This document shows, one piece after another, positions 4,964 through 16,438 of a stretch of DNA of 64,000 bases. Every line of letters starts with the position of its first letter. Within the stretch, counting starts at the first letter, position 1. The notes beneath the pieces were generated by a model. That model ran no database searches, was not told the DNA's origin, and was given only the letters and a program-made list of their open reading frames with translations. The translations under genes were made by a program, and so were the position numbers. This DNA is from Salaquimonas pukyongi (GTDB lineage: Bacteria > Pseudomonadota > Alphaproteobacteria > Rhizobiales > Rhizobiaceae): contig NZ_CP019044.1 of NCBI RefSeq assembly GCF_001953055.1, forward strand, positions 1,488,001 to 1,552,000. Reading direction: 5' to 3'.

Positions 4964-5040
4964 GGTCCCGTAGCTCAGCTGGATAGAGCATCCGCCTTCT
5001 AAGCGGACGGTCGCAGGTTCGAATCCTGCCGGGATCGCCA
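4964..5040 (+). tRNA. tRNA-Arg (anticodon UCU), attachment site of the integrated element
   Basis: 77 bases with encoded CCA. The acceptor stem pairs GGTCCCG with CGGGATC, the D arm is GCTC...GAGC, the anticodon arm is TCCGC-CTTCTAA-GCGGA (anticodon TCT), and the T arm is GCAGG-TTCGAAT-CCTGC. The last 15 bases (5026-5040) recur at 14011-14025, so this tRNA gene was the integration target. Insertion regenerated an intact tRNA 3' end. Confidence 0.98.
5026..5040 (+). repeat. attL core (tRNA-Arg 3' end)
   Basis: CTGCCGGGATCGCCA, the T-arm and acceptor 3' part of tRNA-Arg including CCA. It is identical to 14011-14025. The bases AAT also match three positions further upstream after one mismatch. 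It is the crossover region expected for a tRNA-targeting tyrosine integrase. Confidence 0.88.
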
Positions 5041-5062
5041 TCCTTTTTATAGGCTTCTGTTT

Positions 5063-6166
5063 TCATTTGCATTTTCCCGATTTTTTCCCAACCACCGCCT
5101 TAGGTTGGGAAACTTTCTGTTCTGTTTTTGTATCGGAAAGAAGATCGAATGCCTGGTCGGCGAGAAGCGCACTTTCAGCAGCGGCGGTGTATCTGGCGAC
5201 TTCTGAAAGGCTCGTGTGGCCGGTGACAGCCTTTATCTGATTAGCAGTGGCGCCGCTTTCCGCGAGCCTTTTTGCCATCCTCTTTCGAAGCCCATGTGCA
5301 CTACAATTCTTCAAACCTGCATTGTCACACGCTGCCCTGAAAAAATTTCCGAAGCCGGCCGCTGTGAACGGCATGCCACGGCTGGTCAGAAGGAAGGCCA
5401 GGTTGCGCTTAGGAACGGAGTTGATGGAAGCCCACAATTCAGGCGGAACGCGAATATCCACCGGCGCGCCTGTCTTGCTTTGGTTGAATTTTAGGCGTCC
5501 GTTCTCGACGTGCTGCCAGCCCATTTTCACAACGTCCGATCGCCGCTGGCCCGTGTATCGAAGAAGATCGAAGGCCAGCCTCTCGGCAGTTCCGATTGGA
5601 TGCGAAGCAGTAAACTGCTGAATGTCGGCTTCCGTCCAGGCCCGCCAGCCTGCGGATTTCTTGGAATAGCCCTTAATCCCGTGAGCAGGGTTTCTGCGGA
5701 TCATCCCGATCAGCACAGCGTGATCCAAAATCTGCCTTAGAATAGATAGCCAGCGATTTGCCGCGTGAGGCCGGTCAGCCATGCCATCGATCAGTTTTTG
5801 AACATGCCGTGGCTCTAGCAGTACGATTCTTTTGTCGCCATGCGCGGTTCGAATCTTCTCAATGATCGGGCGCTTGGCCCCTTTGCTGCTGTCGCGGATG
5901 TTTTGATAAGCAGCGGAAGAAAGGTAGGCGACGATCGCGGCGTTAAGTGTTCCTGATTTTGTCTTGCTGGCGCCAGGCTCGATCGCCGCAACTTCCAGAT
6001 CTCCCAATGCATCCTGATAAGCCTTGTTGAAATCGTCGGAGTATACTGGCCCTGGCAGGTATCGGGATTGCCAGACGCCGCCTATCTTGCGGCGGAAACG
6101 AAGGCGCTTCTTTCCATGCCGGTCTTTGGCCCAGGTTACATGTTTGGGGAGAGTGCGGCGCCTCAT
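5063..6166 (-). CDS. int: tyrosine site-specific recombinase (integrase)
   Basis: 367 residues. It catalyses integration and excision at the tRNA-Arg att site. The C-terminal catalytic domain has the full set: Arg208 in TGQRRSDV, Lys231 in SKTG, His291 and Arg294 in HGLRKR, His317 in TGHTS, and the Tyr326 nucleophile in ARYTAA. An N-terminal arm-binding region and a SAM-like core-binding region precede it. ATG 6166 is chosen because it overlaps the upstream gene stop as ATGA, giving translational coupling; a frame extension to 6190 would overlap further. The stop lies 23 bp from the tRNA, the usual prophage arrangement. Confidence 0.95.
   Translation of the reverse strand: MRRRTLPKHVTWAKDRHGKKRLRFRRKIGGVWQSRYLPGPVYSDDFNKAYQDALGDLEVAAIEPGASKTKSGTLNAAIVAYLSSAAYQNIRDSSKGAKRPIIEKIRTAHGDKRIVLLEPRHVQKLIDGMADRPHAANRWLSILRQILDHAVLIGMIRRNPAHGIKGYSKKSAGWRAWTEADIQQFTASHPIGTAERLAFDLLRYTGQRRSDVVKMGWQHVENGRLKFNQSKTGAPVDIRVPPELWASINSVPKRNLAFLLTSRGMPFTAAGFGNFFRAACDNAGLKNCSAHGLRKRMAKRLAESGATANQIKAVTGHTSLSEVARYTAAAESALLADQAFDLLSDTKTEQKVSQPKAVVGKKSGKCK
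5084..5112. repeat. GGTTGGGAAA inverted pair at the left end (candidate recombinase arm sites)
   Basis: TTTCCCAACC (5084-5093) and GGTTGGGAAA (5103-5112) form a perfect 10-bp inverted repeat with a 9-bp spacer, inside the last codons of int and about 45 bp from the att core. The same GGTTGGGAA word recurs twice near the right end (13914 and 13965). Position at both ends fits arm-type sites for Int or Xis; this is inference. Confidence 0.55.
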
Positions 6167-6366
6167 TCCGCCCCCAACTCTGCATCCCATTCATTTATTT
6201 CGCCATCCCTGACCTGTGCCAGGTTTCTGGCGGGGAGAGGGTCGCCGATAATGATCTGCGTGGTGCCGTCGGATGTGATCTGGATGCAGGATATCGGAAG
6301 CGATTGCGCTTTGGCAGCGCGAATACCTCTTTCCAAGTCTGCCTGTTTGTAGCTCACCTTCGACAT
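6163..6366 (-). CDS. small integrase-coupled protein of unknown function
   Basis: 67 residues (MSKVSYKQADLERGIRAAKA ... GDPLPARN). Its stop overlaps the int start as ATGA, so the two are translated together. Similar short proteins with a QADxxRxIKAAK-type helix commonly sit directly upstream of integrases in alphaproteobacterial prophages; no function is known to me. A directionality or regulatory role is possible but not shown. A strong 12-bp hairpin lies just upstream. Confidence 0.75.
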   Translation of the reverse strand: MSKVSYKQADLERGIRAAKAQSLPISCIQITSDGTTQIIIGDPLPARNLAQVRDGEINEWDAELGAE

Positions 6367-6384
6367 GATTCTTTCTTTTTAAAT

Positions 6385-6424
6385 CCCCCATCCGGTGCGA
6401 TCGCCAAATTCGACCGGATGGGGG
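6385..6424 (-). other. 12-bp perfect hairpin upstream of the int operon
   Basis: CCCCCATCCGGT (6385-6396) and ACCGGATGGGGG (6413-6424) form a perfect 12-bp stem with a 16-base loop. It lies between the capsid gene stop (6541) and the 67-aa gene start (6366). On the minus strand it is followed by an A-rich rather than U-rich tract, so it is not a classical terminator. It may shield the int operon from capsid read-through or be a protein operator. Confidence 0.6.
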
Positions 6425-6540
6425 GGTGATATGCATTGCACCATACATGAAGGTGGTGTTTCAATTCACCTATACGGGGCGGATGCAATGCTTGAGGGTC
6501 AATCACTTGCCCATCATCGGAGAACCCCGTACCTCGATAT

Positions 6541-8424
6541 TTACGCGTTTGGATCAATGCCGGCGTTGAAGTAAACCGCCCGCCAGTCCCCGACACCGCA
6601 ACCGAAGTCCAGGCAAGCGCGAAATTCGCGTCCCCGAACTCCCCAGCCGTCGCGGCTCTCGATCTGTGGCCCGTCATTGCCATCCAGGTAACCGTGAACG
6701 AACGCTGGCCTGGTTTCCGGATCAGCGAAGATCCACCAACCATAGCCTTCGTATCGGGTCTCGACCTCAACACGGAGCTTGCCGGAAAACGGGTTGACCT
6801 CCGATACTTGGGCTGCCGACAGCGATGCAATAAGTTGCTCAGCGGCAGTTTGCATCCTCGGCCCGGTTACGATTACGGCGGGAACCGTACCAGCGCGACC
6901 GGTGCCGTTGACGTTCTTAAGGAGCTGCATCGCCGTTCGAGCCTCCGAAAGGCTATCAACCGAAAGTGTTGCCGCCGTATCGGCTAGGTTCCCTCTGTCT
7001 GCATGGAATAGTGTTTTCCCATCGGTCAGTTTTTTGCCGTTGAAGGAATTTTGCGAAAGAAGTTCGAAGAACTCGTCGCCTTCCGTCGTGGCCGCAGATT
7101 CCGCGAACGATTGAATGAAGTCGCCGAAAGCGTCCAGATCATCGTTGATGATCGCCTTTCGGCTAAGGCCAAAAATCCTGGCATATTCGCTGAGTTGAAA
7201 CGCGTTGTCTTCGACCTCCATTGTGCCGCGCTTGATTTCACCGTCTTCCGCAACTTTCTCCAGGCGCGGCGCTTCCCCGCGCCGGATCATTTTTTGCGGT
7301 CGGAAGTCATTGGCGTTTCGCTGGCGGGAGAGCCGCTTCAACGGCGTCAGTTCAGCGCCGAAGCGCTCTAGCAGTGCGCGGCTACCCCCTTCCAGCAACA
7401 GCGATGGAAAATCCGACGTAGTGTGAAGGCCGCGCTCGGAGGAGCTCCAAAAACTATCGTCTAGCGCACGTTCGACCACATCACGATCCCGCATGTCCCG
7501 CGTGGATTGTCCGTTGAGTTCCAGCATGGTTCTAGCCAGTTCACCGGTAGACATTCCCGCCATCGGATTACCGGCGAGAGAACTTTGGGCTCCAAGACGG
7601 ACGGCGAAGGCATCAATAATTTGTGCTTCGATATCGTGGCTGCGATGCTGTGCTGGTGCTCCGGAACGGTTTGGTATCGTCTGGATTGCCGCCGCGTGAG
7701 CAGAAAGCAAATCGAAGAGCACAATGCGGGCTTGATCCTTATTCCGAACACTCGCGAATGCTTCATCCACTTGCCGTTCTGAAATTCCGGCATCGAGCGC
7801 ATGGTTACGGAAATAGGCTATCTCACTGCCGCCGCTGACGCCAATCGCCGCTGGGCTTGGCATTCCTGCCGGATTGGGATGTTCCTGGGAGCGAATTCTC
7901 GCATTGGGATCGGCGGGGACGGCAACCAAAGAAACCTCGAACGGTTGCCAGCGTGTAATTGTGACGTGCGTTATACCGTCCTTACCGGTAGTTTCTTCTT
8001 CATCGAGCCGAAACAAGCCGATTGAAACGCTCTTGATAACCCCTTCTTTCACCTTCTCAGCTGCAGACTGACCCTCGGCGCTGTTTGAAAACCGAAGTCT
8101 GGCGATCAGACCATCATCCTCAAACCAGACGTCCTCGACTGTTCCAATGATTGCTTTGATGCTCTCGCGTGACCGATGAGTATCAAGCAGAGGAGCCCCA
8201 ATGATGCGACTGAGGTCAACGCTTGCCTTGTCCATTGAAAGCGTCTCGGTCAAAGACGGGCCAAGCCGGACGGGTTTGCCGGTAGCAATCACCGCTTTGA
8301 CTGTGTTCGTGTCCTGGTTGAATGAAGATGGCGAAAGGTTCAACAAGCGCGTCGCCACCTGCCCATCAAGTGAGCGCGTCAGTATTGGGTGTGAGAGTTC
8401 ATTTTTGTGGGCTTGGATATTCAT
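6541..8424 (-). CDS. prohead protease / major capsid protein fusion
   Basis: 627 residues. Residues about 30-200 are an S78-type (HK97 family) prohead protease with His83 in LLDTHR, the EDDGL strand and Ser134 in SVSIGL. A linker (about 210-310) rich in Ala and Gln could act as a scaffold. Residues about 320-627 resemble the Mu-like/HK97-fold major head subunit (DDSFWSSSERGLHTTSDFP ... GKTLFHADRGNLADTA ... PAVIVTGPRMQTAAEQL). Such natural fusions are known in alphaproteobacterial prophages; the protease matures the capsid after assembly. AAGGA lies 8 bases before the ATG. No portal or terminase gene adjoins it. Confidence 0.9.
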   Translation of the reverse strand: MNIQAHKNELSHPILTRSLDGQVATRLLNLSPSSFNQDTNTVKAVIATGKPVRLGPSLTETLSMDKASVDLSRIIGAPLLDTHRSRESIKAIIGTVEDVWFEDDGLIARLRFSNSAEGQSAAEKVKEGVIKSVSIGLFRLDEEETTGKDGITHVTITRWQPFEVSLVAVPADPNARIRSQEHPNPAGMPSPAAIGVSGGSEIAYFRNHALDAGISERQVDEAFASVRNKDQARIVLFDLLSAHAAAIQTIPNRSGAPAQHRSHDIEAQIIDAFAVRLGAQSSLAGNPMAGMSTGELARTMLELNGQSTRDMRDRDVVERALDDSFWSSSERGLHTTSDFPSLLLEGGSRALLERFGAELTPLKRLSRQRNANDFRPQKMIRRGEAPRLEKVAEDGEIKRGTMEVEDNAFQLSEYARIFGLSRKAIINDDLDAFGDFIQSFAESAATTEGDEFFELLSQNSFNGKKLTDGKTLFHADRGNLADTAATLSVDSLSEARTAMQLLKNVNGTGRAGTVPAVIVTGPRMQTAAEQLIASLSAAQVSEVNPFSGKLRVEVETRYEGYGWWIFADPETRPAFVHGYLDGNDGPQIESRDGWGVRGREFRACLDFGCGVGDWRAVYFNAGIDPNA

Positions 8425-8478
8425 TTCAACAATCCTTGCGTTGCGCTGCCCTTTAGTGAGGGAGCGTTTTGGTGAACT

Positions 8479-9057
8479 TCATTTCTTTTCGTCAGTTACG
8501 TCACCACTTGCGTCTTCAGAATGAGACGTTTCATCGTGGAACTCATCCGATCCCAACTGGCTGCGAACAAGCGTAAAAACACGTGCAATAATGTTGGAGA
8601 TACTGATCTCAATTACCGCTTCGACCGGATAAGTCTTACCGGTTACATTGTCCAAAACAGGCAGCCAAAGACTTTCAAGGGTGGCGTGTTCTTCAGGTTT
8701 CACCACAGACTGCGCGAACCCATGACTATCGGTGTAAAAGACCACACGCCAGATTGCCGCCTCGCGATTTTCATCACGCCGGTTTCGAATTTCTTGGTCA
8801 ATGATATTTTGCCAATAATGGGATACACGAATTTCTTGAAACCACCATCCAAGATCGGCACCGTTTGTTAGGGTGTAAAGTCGGTATGCGAGCGCAGCCG
8901 AACACAATTCTTTCAAGGAATACTTTTTATGCCCCTTACCGAAACCATACCCATTGAGCACACCGCGGCTGCGCCACGCTCTTCCAGTATCCGTTCCCGC
9001 ACCAGCAGCGGCCAACATAAGTGCTCGCGTCGAAAAGATGTAAATTGACTTCGTCAT
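8479..9057 (-). CDS. MerR-like helix-turn-helix protein upstream of the capsid gene
   Basis: 192 residues. Near the N-terminus STRALMLAAAGAGTDTGRAW, then RSRGVL, GKGHKKYSLKELCSAALA resembles the helix-turn-helix plus wing of MerR-type DNA-binding domains. The C-terminal half is acidic, ends in a polar tail (SEDASGDVTDEKK) and is not recognised. ATG 9057 is preferred; the frame could extend to a GTG at 9087 but that lies in the operator palindrome. It shares an operon with the capsid gene (54-bp gap). Two GTGAC-N3-GTCAC palindromes just upstream suggest autoregulation. A small-terminase-like role cannot be excluded. Confidence 0.65.
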   Translation of the reverse strand: MTKSIYIFSTRALMLAAAGAGTDTGRAWRSRGVLNGYGFGKGHKKYSLKELCSAALAYRLYTLTNGADLGWWFQEIRVSHYWQNIIDQEIRNRRDENREAAIWRVVFYTDSHGFAQSVVKPEEHATLESLWLPVLDNVTGKTYPVEAVIEISISNIIARVFTLVRSQLGSDEFHDETSHSEDASGDVTDEKK

Positions 9058-9074
9058 TATCAATTTCCCAATTT

Positions 9075-9135
9075 GTGACGCTGTCACGATTACTACGTGA
9101 CTCTCATCATGTCAAGAAATACGTGACACCGTCAC
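9075..9135. promoter_or_regulatory. twin GTGAC-N3-GTCAC operators
   Basis: GTGAC-GCT-GTCAC (9075-9087) and GTGAC-ACC-GTCAC (9123-9135) are 5-bp inverted repeats with 3-bp spacers, both followed by GAT. Between them another TACGTGAC half site (9094-9101) and GTCA (9111-9114) occur. They sit 18 bp upstream of the MerR-like gene start and are the obvious candidate operator for it. Confidence 0.65.
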
Positions 9136-9202
9136 GATATTGTCTACCCCACACCCCTGCGCTTTGAAAACGAACGAAACACGGGCTGCGTCCCTTGCGG
9201 CT

Positions 9203-9460
9203 TCACTGAATGCCGGTGGTCGAGTGGCCATCGGAAACGCTGGCTGTCACTTGCCAAAAGGAAATCAGCACCTGGGCAGCTTCGGGCGGAATATCGAGTG
9301 CCTCAGCAATCTCTTCTGGACCCAGGGTGCCATCTTCTCCGCTTTGCAATCGGGCATAGAGCGTTTCAAACCGTTCATGGAATTCGGGAGAATTGATCGT
9401 GAAGTCGAAGGCATGCAGCCATTCGCGGATTTGGATGTTGGTTTCGAGCAATTTGTACAT
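9203..9460 (-). CDS. hypothetical protein
   Basis: 85 residues (MYKLLETNIQIREWLHAFDF ... EEIAEALDIPPEAAQVLISFW). Acidic and predicted helical; the EEIAEALDIPPEAA stretch looks like a helix-turn-helix or sigma-like recognition segment but no family is certain. AGGAA lies 7 bases upstream of the ATG, and this frame has balanced charge, whereas the overlapping 84-residue frame (9265-9519) does not look like a protein. The SD overlaps the stop of the excisionase-like gene, suggesting coupling. Confidence 0.65.
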   Translation of the reverse strand: MYKLLETNIQIREWLHAFDFTINSPEFHERFETLYARLQSGEDGTLGPEEIAEALDIPPEAAQVLISFWQVTASVSDGHSTTGIQ

Positions 9461-9472
9461 CTATGGTTCCTT

Positions 9473-9658
9473 TCATTGGCTTGATTTGGAAGTGCGATCC
9501 CAGGCCACGCGCCCGGCATGCTTGGCGATGGGCATCACTTTTTGCCGCGACATCTGATCGAATTTGGAAGGTGGCACGCCAATGCAGCAGGCTGACTCGC
9601 AGCGCGAAAGGCTGTGCATCGGGTAAAAAATTGAATCACGTTTGATCTGGCGTGCCAC
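9473..9658 (-). CDS. excisionase/AlpA-like small DNA-binding protein
   Basis: 61 residues. SRCESACCIGVPPSKFDQM then MPIAKHAGRVAWDR follows the pattern of short winged HTH proteins of the excisionase/AlpA type (SRREAAxYIGVSPxxFDxxV...MPKPxxIxGRVVWD). These act as recombination directionality factors beside tyrosine integrases. The GTG start at 9658 is chosen because CAGGAGG (9667-9673) lies 8 bases upstream; an ATG further up at 9703 has no SD. It ends shortly after the WDR motif, so it may be slightly truncated. Confidence 0.6.
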   Translation of the reverse strand: MARQIKRDSIFYPMHSLSRCESACCIGVPPSKFDQMSRQKVMPIAKHAGRVAWDRTSKSSQ

Positions 9659-9747
9659 CCTCGCATCCTCCTGAATGTTTCCAAACGATCCCGCAGAGAT
9701 CATCTAGCAACGCGGCCTGAGGTATCCGCGCGCAGTTCTGATGCTGC

Positions 9748-10209
9748 TTATTGATGGGCCTTGGTATTCAGGAGCGGCATCAGGGATCTGCAAATCTGTA
9801 GAGCCGCAGTCTCTTCATGCGTCCACTCGAACGCATCATCGTGATACGAAGGGGTCAAACGAATGACTTCAAGCTTGAGGAGAAGATCGGCAAAGTCGTA
9901 AACTTCGCAGCTGTACATGACCTCCTCGAGTCGACCATAGCGATCGAGGAGCGTCTCATATTCGCGTTCCGCCGCCAATCCTTTCGGTGAGGCCCCATCT
10001 TCGACGGTATCTTGTTTTGCGCGCGCTTCATCCAGTGCGGCAGATAACCTAAGGAAGCGGAGTGCAGCGCCCTCGAAAAGAGTCAGTCCGTTCGCTCTCT
10101 TGTCTTCCAACATATGCAGTATCTCGGAGGCACTGCGATTGGGACCTGCGGAAGAATTGATTGCTGCCATGATGTTTTCCTCGCATTCGACCAGTTTCAG
10201 GTTTTGCAT
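9748..10209 (-). CDS. hypothetical protein of the integrated element
   Basis: 153 residues (MQNLKLVECEENIMAAINSS ... RSLMPLLNTKAHQ), acidic, predicted mostly helical with possible coiled-coil (FLRLSAALDEARAKQDTVED). No family recognised. A good SD (AAGGAGC) lies 6 bases before the ATG. It is divergent from the XRE gene, with paired operators in the 73-bp gap, so it is probably the first gene of the leftward early transcript. Confidence 0.65.
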   Translation of the reverse strand: MQNLKLVECEENIMAAINSSAGPNRSASEILHMLEDKRANGLTLFEGAALRFLRLSAALDEARAKQDTVEDGASPKGLAAEREYETLLDRYGRLEEVMYSCEVYDFADLLLKLEVIRLTPSYHDDAFEWTHEETAALQICRSLMPLLNTKAHQ

Positions 10210-10233
10210 TTTCAGCTCCTTAAGTTAGAATTT

Positions 10234-10279
10234 ACACACTTGTGCACTTAATCAGATTTCCGAAAATACACAAGTGTGT
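10234..10279. promoter_or_regulatory. paired operators between divergent XRE and 153-aa genes
   Basis: ACACACTTGTGC (10234-10245) and ACACAAGTGTGT (10268-10279) are near-perfect reverse complements of each other, and each contains a CACA-NN-TGTG dyad. They lie symmetrically in the divergent promoter region, the right one abutting the XRE start codon. This is the layout of a phage repressor switch. Confidence 0.65.
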
Positions 10280-10282
10280 AAT

Positions 10283-10516
10283 ATGGCTAAACTAACACCA
10301 GAAGCGCTGAGAGCTGCCCGAGCACTCTTGAATTGGTCGATGCGTGACTTAGCTGCTGCAGCAGGATTGAGTTTTTCGACAATCGCAAAAATTGAAAGCG
10401 GGACGGTTCCTCGAGACGCTACAGCGTCGGCGATCGTTCAAGCATTGGCCCGCCACAACGTTGAAATCATCAACGGCGATGGAACTGGGGCTCGGCTGAG
10501 GTTTCAAAAAAGGTAG
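10283..10516 (+). CDS. XRE-family transcriptional regulator
   Basis: 77 residues, a single Cro/C1-type HTH: LTPEALRAARALLNWSMRDL, AAAAGLSFSTIAKIESG, then a C-terminal strand ARLRFQKR. No cleavage or oligomerisation domain is present. It is the only plus-strand gene of the element, divergent from the leftward genes, with two operators in between. ATG 10283 follows an operator directly with no SD, so the mRNA may be leaderless; a GTG at 10274 is an alternative. It probably represses its own and the leftward promoter. Confidence 0.85.
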   Translation: MAKLTPEALRAARALLNWSMRDLAAAAGLSFSTIAKIESGTVPRDATASAIVQALARHNVEIINGDGTGARLRFQKR

Positions 10517-10530
10517 TTTCGAGCGACGGT

Positions 10531-12348
10531 TCATTTTTTCTTGCCAGCATCCGGCATGGTGGTTCCCAGACTACGGGCGGTTGATGAACTGCCGGGGCCG
10601 GCAAATCCAAGCGACCGATTGAGCGCAGCGCGCCGCTTTTCCAAAGCCCGCATTTTTGCTTCAGCAGCACTCGTATCGGCATCGACTTTCACCACCACTG
10701 TTTTTTCCGCTCGCCTCGTGAAATCATCTACGGCGGCATCGGCAGCGCTGGTTTCTGCATCGACTTCGATTTGGATTGATTCATCGTCCAGGTCGATCGG
10801 TGCAAAATCGGTCGAGCGCCTCGCATGCTGCCTGGCATAGCGTCCAGACCCCGGTGAGGGCAGGGGGGTGGCGCTTCCCTCAGCCCTTGCCAAATCTCGC
10901 TGCGTCTGATGGCGCCGAAAATAGCGCTCGTTGGACTCGTAGTTGTCGATTACATCCTGCGGAGTTCTGGGGAGTGCCGCTTCACCGCTCTTGTTCTGTC
11001 CAGGGCGAATGGGGTTTCTACCCAGTAGCTCGTAAGCCTGCCTGTTTCGATCTCGCGCCAGCTTCGCGACTTCATCAGGCGCATATCCTCCAATTCGTGC
11101 CATGCGGTCTTTGTAAGCGTTGCTGTAAAGACCGCTTGCCAGTCGATCCCAACTTGATAGCCCCATTTCCTTATGAGCTTTTGCGATCGCGGAGTGATAG
11201 TCGATGCTTTCGTTTATGGCATCCACACCTCCGGTAATTGCCGGCGCGACGAATGCGCCGACATTGGAGGATAGCTGGCTGATCGAAGCCATCATCCTGT
11301 CCAATGCAGCCTGATTATCCTCCAGCACGGCTTTCACATTGGCATCGATCATACCCTTTGACTTCGAACGGATCGTATCGACACGTTTTTCGATTTCATC
11401 CATTTGCTGAAGAAGAACGCGGGCAAAGTTCCTAGAATCAACCTCGCCAAACAACTGGGATAGCTTGGTCGCATCATCACCGGTCGCACGCCTGATTAGC
11501 CGGTGCATGGTAAGCTCAATTCTCTCCCCTGCTTCTTGGGCTTTTGTAAGTTCCGTCTCCAGGTTTATTCCGAGTTTCGAAAACGATTTTTGCACAGCAG
11601 GCGAAGTGATCTTCTCCATGAAGTCTCGGAAGCCATTTGCGGCCTGCTGCGAACCGCCGGTGAAATCGCGCATGGTTTCCAATAGGGCAACTATGCGCTC
11701 GGTGCCTTCAAGCCCCTCAAAGCCCAAGTTCCCAGCTATGGGAGCTAGGCTGGGTAGATAAGTGGCCAAGTCTGACGCTTCGAATTTGCCGGCGGCGCCA
11801 CCTGCCGCAATGATGTCAAAAAACCTCTCTGCTTCACCACCCGCGATCCCCAGCGATTTCCTGGCTGCATCGAAAGTATTTGCGATTTGCTGGCCACTTG
11901 CTCCAATCGCCTGTTGCGACTTCGCTAAGGCATCCATCCGAGTACGGATTTCATCAAGTTCCATGCCGCTTTCGGCCATCGCATCTACTGTGCCGATCAC
12001 CTCTTCTTGCGACAAGCTCCAACGCCTAGCGACCTCAAAAATCTGATCACCCAGATCCCTCATTTGATCGCGATTAGCATCCAGCTTGTTGCCGATGCGG
12101 GTTAGGGTTCTCTCATCGCCGGAGAATTTCTTGTAGGCCGATACGCTGGCTACGGTCATGGCAGCCGTTGTCGCAACCGCTGCCCTGCCGAAAGCTACGA
12201 AGTTTCTGGCCGTGTCGCGCTGGGATTTGTTATAGGCTGCAGCCTGCCGATTGACGCTATCAAGATTCTTGCTGACCGATCGAAACGCCGCAGCGGTGTT
12301 GTCCTTCGCCGACAGCTTTAGCCGTGCCTCAATTTCTCGATTTGCCAT
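10531..12348 (-). CDS. phage tail tape-measure protein
   Basis: 605 residues. Tape-measure proteins span the tail tube, set its length and help DNA ejection. The family core is recognisable: KFSGDERTLTRIGNKL, ARRWSLSQEEVIGTVDAMAESG, AKSQQAIGASGQQIANTFDA, AAGGAAGKFEASDLATYLPSLA and a hydrophobic NVGAFVAPAITGGVDAI segment. It is short for a tape measure and ends in a repeated DAETSAADAAVDDFTRR / DADTSAAEAKMRALEKR module. AAAGG precedes the ATG. No other tail gene is nearby, which is odd. Confidence 0.88.
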   Translation of the reverse strand: MANREIEARLKLSAKDNTAAAFRSVSKNLDSVNRQAAAYNKSQRDTARNFVAFGRAAVATTAAMTVASVSAYKKFSGDERTLTRIGNKLDANRDQMRDLGDQIFEVARRWSLSQEEVIGTVDAMAESGMELDEIRTRMDALAKSQQAIGASGQQIANTFDAARKSLGIAGGEAERFFDIIAAGGAAGKFEASDLATYLPSLAPIAGNLGFEGLEGTERIVALLETMRDFTGGSQQAANGFRDFMEKITSPAVQKSFSKLGINLETELTKAQEAGERIELTMHRLIRRATGDDATKLSQLFGEVDSRNFARVLLQQMDEIEKRVDTIRSKSKGMIDANVKAVLEDNQAALDRMMASISQLSSNVGAFVAPAITGGVDAINESIDYHSAIAKAHKEMGLSSWDRLASGLYSNAYKDRMARIGGYAPDEVAKLARDRNRQAYELLGRNPIRPGQNKSGEAALPRTPQDVIDNYESNERYFRRHQTQRDLARAEGSATPLPSPGSGRYARQHARRSTDFAPIDLDDESIQIEVDAETSAADAAVDDFTRRAEKTVVVKVDADTSAAEAKMRALEKRRAALNRSLGFAGPGSSSTARSLGTTMPDAGKKK

Positions 12349-12677
12349 CTATCAAACCTTTCTCGTTGCTGATCTTCGGTTGATGTCAACCGGCTCTGTT
12401 TTTGGTCAACCTTGTCAACCCAGTTTCGGAACAGGATCACTAGCGATATTTCGGGGTCGTCCCGCCCCGTGTTTAGGGAGGGCCAGGAAGGACCCATTCA
12501 CCCGGCAATGTCTGCGGGGCAGGCCCCGGTAAACCTTCGATGTCTCGACCGGCTTGCATCGCCGAATGCTGGTGGATTGGCCTGCAACATCGCTTGTGTC
12601 AGGCCGATGTCCAACGATCATAGCTACCATCTCTATTTTCGGTTTATTGAAATCCAACTGCCTCAACCTAAAGACGA

Positions 12678-12982
12678 CCTTGCTTCCCTAAAACCACCTC
12701 TTGCTTCCCTAATCTTCATCCTTGCTTCCCCAGTTAAATTTTTTAAATCATTGTTTTTATTCGTTTTCGTTTTTTTTTGGGGAAGCAAGGGAAGCAAGGG
12801 AAGATAATCTGGGGGTAATGCATGCGCGAAGACGCCTTATTCACTCAAGCTGTTAGTTTTTCATACGTGTAACGCGTAATTTTGCTTCCCCTGCTTCCCC
12901 AGCGTCCAAACTTGTTGATTTACTTATCTTTTTCTTGGGGATGGAAAATTTTGCATTCGCCTCTTCCTTCCCTTGCTTCCCC
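12678..12982. repeat. iteron-like array around an AT-rich segment (possible replication origin)
   Basis: A word CCTTGCTTCCCC or close variants occurs at 12678, 12701, 12720 (forward), 12779 and 12789 (inverted), and 12882, 12892 and 12971 (forward). The copies at 12720-12731 and 12779-12790 are perfect 12-bp inverted repeats flanking a 47-bp segment with only 7 G/C bases. Iterons flanking an AT-rich stretch are typical of satellite and plasmid origins. The whole 747-bp gap between the tape-measure and BRO-N genes (12349-13095) holds no convincing gene. Confidence 0.55.
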
Positions 12983-13095
12983 AAAAGATGACCAAGAATG
13001 CCTATCCAATTGGACGTGCCAGTTTTGACTATCCATTCGAGTCCTAAGATTGGGGGAGAGGGGCTGCCAATTAGACGGGGAAAGGGGCTGGCTGT

Positions 13096-13806
13096 TCATT
13101 TCCGCACCCGCAAGCCACAATATTTAGTGGTGCCTGATTTGCGTACAACAACCTGCTCGGATTGGACAACATACTTTCCGAACGGGTTACGGCTTACAAT
13201 TGGCAGTTCATTTTGTTTCGCCCACCGCTGATAGACGGCGTAAAGGTCGCTCGCCCAGATATCGGCAGCGCTATCCGGCACAGTTCGCTCATTCAGGAAC
13301 TGGCAAATATTGCTAAAGTCAGTTCCGGTCCTTGTGCCTGCGTGCCCGGCCTTGGCAGCGGGTAGGCCGAGTGCTTTCCAGGTGTCCAATGCTGCGCGTC
13401 TGCCGCGCACTAATCGAGCCTCTCTGACAGCCGCAATCTTGTCGCGGAAACTCATTTCCTCGTTGGGTGCGCACTGGGCGTAGCCATCGGTCGAGCGGAG
13501 TGGCGCAATCACCTTGTCAAAAATAAATCGCTTGAAACGCTCTGCATCCGGCTGCCGGCAAGTGAAAATCAAACGGTACACACCCAATTCGCTGATCCCG
13601 ATCGATGTGCTTTCCGAAGGCCGGAATTGGCTTGTTGGAATGTTCTCTCGTCGTTCATCCAGGCTTAGCCGTTCCATCGCACGATCAACGTCACGAATGC
13701 CGAGGCACCGACAAACATCCTTGCCGACAAACCAGTATTCGTCACCGATTTGCGCTATGCGGAGCACGTCGCCGAGATAATCAAACGTCAGGATCACAGG
13801 TGTCAT
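13096..13806 (-). CDS. BRO-N domain antirepressor-like protein
   Basis: 236 residues. Residues 1-110 are a Bro-N domain (GDEYWFVGKDVCRCLGI, ISELGVYRLIFTCRQPDAE, FKRFIFDKVIAPLR), found in phage antirepressors. The C-terminal ~70 residues (CQFLNERTVPDSAADIWASD, LYAVYQRWAKQN, NPFGKYVV, KYCGLRVR) resemble the winged-helix at the C-terminus of phage/poxvirus D5-type primase-helicases. A good SD (AAAGGTGG) precedes the ATG. It lies beside the iteron-like array, so DNA binding there is an attractive guess only. Confidence 0.78.
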   Translation of the reverse strand: MTPVILTFDYLGDVLRIAQIGDEYWFVGKDVCRCLGIRDVDRAMERLSLDERRENIPTSQFRPSESTSIGISELGVYRLIFTCRQPDAERFKRFIFDKVIAPLRSTDGYAQCAPNEEMSFRDKIAAVREARLVRGRRAALDTWKALGLPAAKAGHAGTRTGTDFSNICQFLNERTVPDSAADIWASDLYAVYQRWAKQNELPIVSRNPFGKYVVQSEQVVVRKSGTTKYCGLRVRK

Positions 13807-13913
13807 TTGCCACCTTTAATCGAGGGATAGGAGTTCTCCCCGCACCCCCTAAGAGTTGAAGCGGACAAACAGGGCGGCGATGCCCTTTCCTCCCTGGAGG
13901 GACGCTGATTTTC

Positions 13914-13976
13914 GGTTGGGAAGCGGGAAAAATTCCGCAATGATTTCAGGGATAGGATATTCGCGGTTGGGAAACT
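13914..13976. repeat. GGTTGGGAA direct repeats at the right end (candidate arm sites)
   Basis: GGTTGGGAAG (13914-13923) and GGTTGGGAAACT (13965-13976) lie 35 and 88 bp inside the right att core. The second matches 5103-5114 at the left end over 12 bases. The stretch 13807-14010 otherwise holds no gene. Confidence 0.55.
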
Positions 13977-14010
13977 GCAAATATTTGATATGATGACAAA
14001 TCCCGCAATT

Positions 14011-14025
14011 CTGCCGGGATCGCCA
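14011..14025 (+). repeat. attR core
   Basis: CTGCCGGGATCGCCA, identical to the tRNA-Arg 3' end at 5026-5040. Base composition returns to the host average just after it. The flanking three bases differ, so the perfect core is 15 bp. Confidence 0.88.
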
Positions 14026-14809: not shown

Positions 14810-16438
14810 ATGACGGACGATAACCCAGCCGACACCGCCGCCAAAAAAGCCGGCGCCCCCACATTACGCACCGAAAAGCGGTTAAGGGCAGTAGGGCGCC
14901 GCGGTGGCGGGCGCGCCGGCAATACCCGGGGCAAGGGCGCCATCATCGATCAAATTCCCTGGAGCGTGCCGGTCAATCTCGACAAGCCGGTCGAGCCCCT
15001 GCCTCCCGAAGGCATCGAGGCAATTCACAACAATGCCATGCGCATTCTGGAGGAAGTCGGCATCGAGTTCCTCAACCCGGAGGCGGTCGGGATCTTCCGC
15101 AAGGAAGGCTGCACCATCGAGAATGAGAGCACCACGGGCGCCGTTGTGAAGATGGACCGTGCCTGGGTGATGGAAAAAATCGCCCTTGCGCCCTCAAGTT
15201 TCACCCTTACGCCGCGCAATCGCGACCGGCAGATTACCATCGGCGGCAACCATATCCTGTTCGGCAATGTATCTTCGGCGCCCAACTGCCACGATCTTGA
15301 CCGGGGCAGGCGCACGGGGGATCGGGAAGCCTACCGAGATTTCATCAAGCTGACCCAGTATTTCAACTGCATTCACTTTGCCGGCGGTTATCCGGTGGAG
15401 CCGATGGACATCCACCCGTCGGTGCGCCACTTCGACTGCCTGTACGACAAGCTGACGCTTACCGACAAGGTCGTTCATGCCTATTCCCTGGGCAGTGAGC
15501 GGGTCGAGGACGTCATGGAGATGGTGCGCATTGCAGGCGGGATGACCCATGAAGAATTCGCCGCCACGCCCTGCATGTACACCAACATCAACTCCACCTC
15601 GCCGCTAAAGCACGACTGGCCGATGATTGACGGGCTTCTGCGTCTGTCCCGCAAGGGCCAGGCGACCGTGGTAACGCCCTTTACGCTTGCCGGCGCCATG
15701 TCGCCGATCACGCTGGCAGGAACCGTTTCCAGCTCAATTGCCGAAGCGCTGTGCGCCATCGCGCTGATCCAGACGGTCAATCCCGGCTGTCCCTGCGGGT
15801 TCGGAACCTTTTCCTCGAATGTCGACATGAAGACCGGCGCACCGGCCTTCGGGACGCCGGACTACATGCGCACGACACAGATGACCGGCCAGATGGCGCG
15901 CTATTACGGATTGCCGCTTCGTTCCTCCAACACCTGTGTGTCGAATGCGCCGGACAATCAGGCAACCTGGGAAAGCTCCCACTCGCTGTTTGCCGCCATC
16001 ACCTCCGGCTCCAACATGGTCTATCACGCAGCCGGCTGGCTCGAAGGCGGTCTTTGTGCTGGCTATGAAAAGTTCGTCATGGACTGCGAGCAATTGCAGC
16101 AGATCATCACCTATGTTTCCAAACCCGCTAAATGGGACGAGGGCGAACTGGCGTTCGACGCGATCAGTGAAGTCGGCCATGGCGGCCATTTCTTCGGCAT
16201 CCAGCATACCCAGGACCGCTACGAGAAGGCCTTTTACAGCCCGTTTCTTTCCGATTGGTCGAACTTCGAGAACTGGCGTGACCGCGGCAGCGTGGAAACG
16301 GTCAAACGCGCCAACATCCTGTGGAAGAAAATTCTGGAGGAATTCGAGGCACCGCCGATGGACGAGGCGATCCGCGAGGAACTTTCCGAGTTTGTCGAGC
16401 GCCGCAAGCGCGAGGGCGGCGCACCGACCGATTTTTAA
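14810..16438 (+). CDS. trimethylamine methyltransferase (MttB) family protein, non-pyrrolysine
   Basis: 542 residues. It belongs to the MttB superfamily of corrinoid-dependent methyltransferases acting on methylated amines or betaines. Family motifs include AMRILEEVGIEFLNPEA, TPLTLAG-like TPFTLAGAMSPITLAG, SNAPDNQATWESSHSL and AISEVGHGGHFFG. No in-frame TAG is needed, so it lacks the pyrrolysine of true MttB and resembles glycine-betaine methyltransferase-type members common in rhizobia. The N-terminal ~40 residues are basic and Gly-rich. No corrinoid protein gene adjoins, so the partner and substrate are unknown. Confidence 0.88.
   Translation: MTDDNPADTAAKKAGAPTLRTEKRLRAVGRRGGGRAGNTRGKGAIIDQIPWSVPVNLDKPVEPLPPEGIEAIHNNAMRILEEVGIEFLNPEAVGIFRKEGCTIENESTTGAVVKMDRAWVMEKIALAPSSFTLTPRNRDRQITIGGNHILFGNVSSAPNCHDLDRGRRTGDREAYRDFIKLTQYFNCIHFAGGYPVEPMDIHPSVRHFDCLYDKLTLTDKVVHAYSLGSERVEDVMEMVRIAGGMTHEEFAATPCMYTNINSTSPLKHDWPMIDGLLRLSRKGQATVVTPFTLAGAMSPITLAGTVSSSIAEALCAIALIQTVNPGCPCGFGTFSSNVDMKTGAPAFGTPDYMRTTQMTGQMARYYGLPLRSSNTCVSNAPDNQATWESSHSLFAAITSGSNMVYHAAGWLEGGLCAGYEKFVMDCEQLQQIITYVSKPAKWDEGELAFDAISEVGHGGHFFGIQHTQDRYEKAFYSPFLSDWSNFENWRDRGSVETVKRANILWKKILEEFEAPPMDEAIREELSEFVERRKREGGAPTDF

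What the first reader, a model, noticed from the sequence alone, without database searches (positions are those of the whole stretch)
5026..14025. Compact ~9-kb tRNA-Arg element with own capsid but no packaging genes: satellite or relic
Seen: a perfect 15-bp att repeat, integrase, excisionase-like gene, two regulators, a capsid-protease fusion, a tape-measure gene and a BRO-N gene, but no portal, terminase, baseplate or lysis gene. Known: capsid-forming phage-inducible islands encode head proteins and borrow other parts from a helper. Inference: this may be a capsid-encoding satellite of a new type in Rhizobiales; a decayed prophage is the alternative.
Basis: partly seen in the sequence, partly recalled or inferred. 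Interest (0 to 1): 0.82.

Follow-up and report, generated by a model that had tools for sequence, protein, structure and literature searches.

The report
Capsid-and-tape-measure phage satellite in Rhizobiales
This 9-kb piece of DNA sits in a tRNA gene and looks like an intact parasite of bacterial viruses that carries its own shell protein and its own tail-length protein but none of the DNA-packaging genes; at least eleven related elements share that gene set, so it is a recurring kind of element and not the remains of a dead virus.

Summary
Confirmed: a 9,004-bp element between tRNA-Arg(TCT) and a 15-bp exact repeat (19 nt, 18/19), carrying integrase, a protease-major-capsid fusion (CAP), a tape-measure protein (TMP), XRE and MerR-type regulators, and a BRO-N protein with a primase-like C-terminus next to eight iterons. 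There is no terminase, portal, other tail or lysis gene. Two congeners have the empty site. The relic explanation is disfavoured. CAP belongs to a family of 9-13-kb tRNA-integrated elements in Alphaproteobacteria: many carry TerS-TerL-portal-CAP-int; others lack TerL and portal and carry CAP plus TMP. The window's CAP falls in a supported 12-member clade with no TerL/portal carrier (9 with TMP, one with tail-fibre-like genes in that slot). In two close relatives, CAP and TMP are under purifying selection. TMPs come from different lineages, and between two sister elements the TMP cassette is swapped for tail-fibre-like genes. Best reading: a satellite that builds its own head shell, puts its own tape measure into a helper's tail (as shown for Vibrio PLEs) and borrows portal, terminase and the rest of the tail. 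No resident helper was found (only a GTA). It is not a cfPICI by definition (portal and terminase tested, absent). No experiment exists; packaging is the main gap.

The parts
4964..5040 (+). tRNA-Arg(TCT), integration target; its 3' end 5022-5040 is attL
   Evidence: ARAGORN; repeat D13
14007..14025 (+). attR copy of the tRNA 3' end (18/19; 15 nt exact)
   Evidence: uninterrupted site in congeners L167 and L168
5063..6190 (-). tyrosine integrase, 375 aa
   Evidence: Pfam PF00589 4.7e-19; best relatives are the integrases of L141 and L251
6163..6366 (-). 67-aa protein overlapping the start of int, possible excisionase
   Evidence: phmmer matches at the same place in L060, L033, L053 (E 1e-3 to 1e-4) and L140, L257; no curated family
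6541..8424 (-). CAP: prohead protease-major capsid protein fusion, 627 aa, with the near-invariant protease residues H83 and S134
   Evidence: PF25209 2.2e-41 and PF04586 2.1e-10; NF045541 4e-156; alignment A2; trees
8479..9087 (-). p202: MerR-type DNA-binding protein, member of a family found just upstream of portal or CAP in most of these elements
   Evidence: iterative HMM, blind and jackknife tests E 6e-4 and 6e-8; AlphaFold model matches MerR-type CvkR, E 1.5e-4
9203..9460 (-). p85, unknown; weak tail-assembly-chaperone match
   Evidence: PF23812 E 0.016, below cut-off; similar ORF upstream of CAP in L258, E 9.5e-4
9473..9703 (-). 76-aa protein related to small proteins lying between CAP and int in relatives; possible excisionase or regulator
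   Evidence: phmmer L085 3.6e-6, L256 4.8e-6; no family hit
9748..10209 (-). p153, unknown; first gene of the leftward CAP-int gene string, divergent from XRE
   Evidence: no family
10232..10281 (.). palindromic ACACAAGTGTGT-type operator between XRE and p153 (inferred)
   Evidence: inverted repeat I10, 18 nt, 89%
10274..10516 (+). XRE/Cro-type repressor, antisense, in the same relative place as in relatives
   Evidence: PF01381 9.7e-12; homologues in many elements
10531..12348 (-). TMP: tail tape-measure protein, 605 aa
   Evidence: PF10145 1e-23, phrog_34270 3.9e-64; TIGR01760 1e-24; phages PPF1 and RR1-A 31%
12678..12984 (.). iteron cluster (8 GGGAAGCA), probable replication origin
   Evidence: GGGAAGCAAGG with up to one mismatch: 7 of the window's 10 sites lie here; 1.9 expected in the whole 64 kb; other elements have iterons just after the replication gene
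13096..13806 (-). BRO-N protein with a primase-type (Pox_D5) C-terminal domain; probable iteron-binding replication protein
   Evidence: PF02498 1.9e-16, PF03288 0.0037; TIGR01613 C-terminus 3e-4; relative L257:3515-4063 directly followed by iterons

Best explanation
It is an intact integrated phage satellite of a recurrent class that encodes only two kinds of virion part: its own head shell (protease-MCP fusion) and a tail tape measure. Shown from sequence: clean insertion in tRNA-Arg(TCT), open genes, the conserved design, absence of terminase and portal, and relatives with the same gene set. Inferred: when a helper phage grows in the cell, the XRE repressor is relieved, Int excises the element, the BRO-N/primase-C protein starts replication at the GGGAAGCAAGG iterons, and CAP assembles shells around the helper's portal. 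The helper's terminase then fills them. The helper's tail tube, sheath and baseplate are built around the satellite's TMP, so that head and tail length become satellite-set, giving chimeric particles as shown for PLEs. How the helper terminase is redirected is unknown for this copy: some relatives carry a TerS, this one has none recognisable. CAP-plus-TMP satellite as the correct reading: about 0.72. That this particular copy is still mobile: about 0.6.
For: Clean insertion and empty sites in congeners. Same-order relatives with integrase at or near a tRNA and no TerL/portal at E<0.1: L141 (rep-TerS-TMP-XRE-p202-CAP-int), Agrobacterium cavarae L321, Hyphomicrobiales MAG L258, Pseudolabrys L256, L257, L268. 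CAP tree: a 12-row clade (95), none with TerL/portal, 9 with TMP. Family-wide, repeat-bounded elements: TerL+ 26, of which 1 has TMP; TerL- 14, of which 9 have TMP (Fisher 6e-5). Purifying selection between close relatives L142 and L143: CAP dN/dS 0.13, TMP 0.08. TMPs of one CAP clade come from different lineages, and TMP is swapped for tail-fibre-like genes between sisters L321 and L251 while the rep and CAP blocks stay 73-78% alike. TAC-like or tail-protein genes lie directly upstream of TMP in L141, L321 and L268. TerS in L141, L150, L156. Mechanistic precedent: PLE TMPs enter the virion and are needed for transduction (PMC12987554).
Against: No experiment on any member. No TerS in this copy, so packaging is unexplained. 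No resident helper: only an RcGTA-type terminase, no GpA terminase, no sheath, no second TMP in the genome. On the CAP tree TerL changes only about four times, so the TMP/TerL association is not made of independent cases. A full replicative helicase-primase is missing.
Confidence: 0.72

Rival explanations
1. Deletion relic of a temperate phage: a prophage lost terminase, portal, tail and lysis genes and only CAP, TMP and int remain by chance.
For: Some phages carry both homologues, e.g. Microcystis phage yong2 (CAP 28.7%, TMP 30.6%). No TerS and no full primase in this copy.
Against: Gene order is reversed relative to phages (TMP before CAP; compare). The same gene set recurs at different tRNAs in several other bacterial lineages. 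CAP clusters with other terminase-less elements and not with phages. TMP relatives PPF1/RR1-A have separate protease and capsid genes of another kind. Genes are open; close relatives show purifying selection.
Confidence: 0.12
2. A terminase-carrying satellite of the cfPICI-like type (TerS-TerL-portal-CAP-int) that recently lost packaging genes and is now dead or needs another satellite.
For: Same skeleton as the TerL-type elements: rep, iterons, antisense XRE, p202-type protein, CAP, int.
Confidence: 0.1
3. An anti-phage island: CAP and TMP are expressed to poison head and tail assembly of invading phages, with little or no transfer.
For: Interference with tail assembly is a known satellite and defence strategy (PMC11364771; PMC12987554); swaps of TMP lineages would fit an arms race.
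Against: An intact protease site, an integrase and a probable replication origin are retained; TerS in several relatives points to packaging.
Confidence: 0.06

Closest known systems
Capsid-forming PICIs (cfPICI; Alqurainy 2023 as described in PMC10690885 and PMC11389934)
   Same: tRNA-integrated, integrase at one end, own major capsid protein and prohead protease, dependent on a helper for tails; the TerL-type relatives in this family resemble cfPICIs
   Different: No portal, connector, TerS or TerL here; has a tape measure. PMC12987554 (Extended Data Fig. 10) reports putative tmp genes in a sampling of cfPICIs
PLE of Vibrio cholerae (PMC12987554)
   Same: Satellite-encoded TMP (with TAC), built into chimeric tails in PLEs; inferred here
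   Different: PLEs use the helper's capsid protein; this element encodes its own protease-MCP fusion; sequence relation to PLE proteins was not tested
Putative E. coli satellites with MCP, decoration protein, TMP and baseplate component but no terminase (PMC10448857)
   Same: Capsid plus TMP, no terminase, tRNA integration
   Different: They lack a prohead serine protease and use RepA_N; here the protease is fused to the capsid protein and replication genes differ; found in Alphaproteobacteria
Rhizobium phages vB_RleM_PPF1 and RR1-A
   Same: Best phage matches of the window's TMP (31%), length 606 aa in PPF1 against 605 aa
   Different: Full contractile-tailed phages with separate protease and capsid genes; a possible kind of helper, not relatives of the element

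Membership tests
cfPICI | own major capsid protein and prohead protease | tested here: met
   fusion CAP
cfPICI | own portal protein | tested here: not met
   no hit at E<0.1 with a family-trained profile
cfPICI | own large and small terminase subunits | tested here: not met
   TerL profile none at E<0.1; TerS profile none in window proteins
cfPICI | head-tail connectors and HNH endonuclease | tested here: not met
   no Pfam, PHROGs or NCBIfam hit; small divergent connectors could be missed
cfPICI | AlpA-like regulator and Pri-Rep replication gene | tested here: inconclusive
   76-aa protein without family hit; BRO-N protein carries only a primase-type C-terminus
PLE-type tail-chimera satellite | satellite-encoded tape measure | tested here: met
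PLE-type tail-chimera satellite | tail assembly chaperone next to TMP | tested here: inconclusive
   window p85 weak (E 0.016); tail-protein/chaperone matches upstream of TMP only in relatives L141, L321, L268
PLE-type tail-chimera satellite | use of the helper's capsid protein | tested here: not met
   own CAP
PLE-type tail-chimera satellite | TMP incorporated into satellite virions | not testable with these tools
   needs virion proteomics
Phage satellite (general) | integrated element with att sites lacking genes for autonomous virions | tested here: met
Phage satellite (general) | helper-dependent mobilisation | not testable with these tools
   no transfer data; no resident helper found
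Decayed prophage | residual genes in phage order, broken genes, relatives in full prophages | tested here: not met
   reverse order, open genes, relatives are compact elements

The most novel reading that the evidence does not exclude
A distinct and widespread class of alphaproteobacterial satellites supplies only the head shell and an exchangeable tail cassette (TMP, with or without a chaperone, or tail-fibre-like genes) and takes portal, terminase and the rest from helpers, so that the satellite sets head size, tail length and possibly host entry of a chimeric particle.
Probability: 0.5. Interest if true: 0.82.

Novelty: new variant of a known kind. Interest (0 to 1): 0.72.

Why it matters
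Satellites were thought to take whole tails from helpers until PLEs were shown in 2026 to insert their own tape measure. Here that appears, with an own capsid and without packaging genes, as the standing design of a clade found in several genera of Rhizobiales, beside terminase-bearing sister elements. The cassette swap between L321 and L251 gives a direct way to ask what a satellite gains from its own tape measure or fibre (tail length, host entry, escape from interference). The two designs side by side allow a test of which head genes a satellite can leave to its helper.

Tried and rejected
Close relatives of CAP by single-protein scans of genome contigs and viral contigs: nothing; alignment queries worked. 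Homologues in the genus: none. A second copy in the genome: none. TerS in the window by profile: none. IMG/VR contigs as evidence of packaged circles: no terminal repeats found, and most contigs are TerL-portal type. p202 as small terminase: rejected, since TerL-type elements carry both a TerS and the p202-type protein, and the model matches a MerR regulator. Defence cargo in the window: none beyond the generic HTH. Independent-pairs test of TMP against TerL on the tree: too few pairs to decide.
Full report
OBSERVATION. The element runs from the 3' end of tRNA-Arg(TCT) (4964-5040) to a second copy of that end at 14007-14025 (18/19; 15 nt exact). G+C is 50-57% inside and about 60% outside. In congeners G005 and G004 the tRNA is followed directly by the right flank (L168, L167), so this is a clean insertion. 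All named genes are open and identified by curated models: integrase, protease-capsid fusion, XRE, tape measure, BRO-N. No terminase, portal, baseplate, sheath, tube or lysis gene was found in the element.

ANATOMY. Read from the right end leftwards: BRO-N protein with a primase-type C-terminal domain; an iteron cluster (8 GGGAAGCA within about 300 bp); TMP; XRE on the other strand with a palindrome at its divergent promoter; p153; a 76-aa protein; p85; p202; CAP; a 67-aa protein; int; tRNA.

THE FAMILY. CAP homologues (up to about 46% identity) were found in 80 of 397 sampled genomes of the order and 72 of 395 of the family (both counts include the window's own genome), but in none of six congeners. 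Taking 20-kb surroundings showed that most of the nearest ones lie in 9-13-kb elements bounded by exact copies of a tRNA 3' end. The commonest design is primase - iterons - TerS - TerL - antisense XRE - p202-type protein - portal - CAP - small genes - int, without tail genes among those searched for, which resembles cfPICIs. A second design lacks TerL and portal and has CAP plus TMP. The window, L141, L142/L143, L321, L256, L258 and L268 have TMP in this design by profile or Pfam, and L257 by PHROGs. A further group has TMP antisense next to CAP (L145, L146, L150-L152, L156, L157). Five TerL-bearing loci also carry a TMP (L044, L054, L060, L061/L093, L155). L081 has portal-CAP-TMP-int. Microvirga L291 has CAP plus TMP with a capsid nearer to phages.

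CLOSEST RELATIVES. L141: replication initiator - TerS - tail-protein/TAC-like gene - TMP - antisense XRE - 235 aa - p202-like - CAP - small protein - int, the order of the window. L257 (Pseudolabrys MAG) is also in tRNA-Arg(TCT) and has a protein with the same primase C-terminus (phmmer to the window's BRO-N protein 2.3e-9; Pox_D5 1.5e-6) directly followed by iterons, then a TMP of a different family, CAP and int. On the CAP tree these and others form a 12-row clade (SH-aLRT 95) in which no row has TerL or portal; 9 have TMP, L251 has tail-fibre-like genes in that place, L047 neither, and L140 is cut by its contig end. An earlier tree without the named genomes gave a compatible result. Trees used the quick method, so fine branching is uncertain.

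NOT A RELIC. (a) The same reduced set recurs at different tRNAs in Agrobacterium, Pseudolabrys, other Hyphomicrobiales and further genera. (b) TMP precedes CAP, the reverse of phage order. (c) Between L142 and L143 dN/dS is 0.13 for CAP and 0.08 for the part of TMP held. (d) Protease residues H83 and S134 are kept. (e) Within one CAP clade the TMPs come from different lineages (L141's groups with Rhizobium phages PPF1/RR1-A at 100; L142/L143's lies elsewhere; L257's matches other PHROGs). (f) Sister elements L321 and L251 share the rep block (78%) and the p202-CAP block (73%), but have TMP in one and tail-fibre-like genes in the other. That is a cassette swap, which decay does not produce.

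TMP AND TERMINASE. Among repeat-bounded elements, 1 of 26 with TerL and 9 of 14 without TerL carry TMP (Fisher p 6e-5). These are not independent: the tree needs about four changes of TerL, and the independent-pairs test had too few pairs. I treat the association as suggestive.

HELPER. The genome is one contig of 3.36 Mb, scored 100% complete. Its only Terminase_6N hit is an RcGTA-type cluster; GpA terminase, sheath and a second TMP are absent. Other terminase families were not searched. A helper would have to come from outside, as is known for a cfPICI (PMC11389934).

MECHANISM. Nothing beyond sequence is shown. Precedent: PLE TMPs replace the helper's in PLE virions, shorten the tail as predicted from their length, and are needed for efficient transduction (PMC12987554). 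I infer the same here, with the difference that the shell is also the satellite's. MCP and TMP are the two size-setting proteins of a tailed particle, which may be why they go together. How helper terminase is aimed at this DNA is open; L141, L150, L156 and others have a TerS, the window has none.

PLACE AMONG KNOWN THINGS. Not a cfPICI by its own definition (portal, TerS and TerL tested and absent), not a PLE (own capsid). It works like a mixture of both and is closest in content to the putative E. coli satellites of PMC10448857, which lack the protease and use other replication genes. PMC12987554 already shows putative tmp genes in some cfPICIs. I found no paper on such elements in Rhizobiales in the library searched, which holds open-licence papers only. 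Hence a new variant of a known kind.

LIMITS. Gene calls in relatives are by a simple codon score; loci of metagenome origin may be misassembled; the p202 assignment is moderate (blind E 6e-4); the excisionase and TAC labels in the window are tentative.

Noticed in passing
G000:C1 around 824868 (L105:12668-19744): RcGTA-type gene transfer agent cluster (terminase, portal, protease, capsid, head-tail genes) in the host genome.
   Followed up: partly
L251:4315-6163: Rhizobiales bacterium AFS092471: tail-fibre-like gene plus a 179-aa phage protein in the place where the sister element in Agrobacterium cavarae (L321) has TMP.
   Followed up: partly
L047:8369-10516: Element whose capsid groups with the window clade but carries a ClpP-type instead of an S78-type protease: protease domain swap in the fusion.
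   Followed up: no
L055:12487-15826: CAP-only 9.9-kb element in tRNA-Gly carrying a subtilase and an AAA ATPase gene side by side, possibly a defence cargo; L066 (related capsid) carries a DUF3644 gene instead.
   Followed up: no
L085:9692-13013: Element at tRNA-Met with TMP and integrase but no capsid hit: possible tail-only satellite.
   Followed up: no
L142 and L143: Two related capsid elements (CAP 87% aa identical) on different contigs of one genome (G426), near tRNA-Ser and tRNA-Lys.
   Followed up: partly
L256:4414-4623: A gpW-like head-tail adaptor (phrog_2545, 2.6e-15) encoded just upstream of TMP in a terminase-less element.
   Followed up: no
window 14810-16438: ORF of 542 aa just right of the element that looks like a trimethylamine methyltransferase (MttB) family protein; from reading alone.
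   Followed up: no
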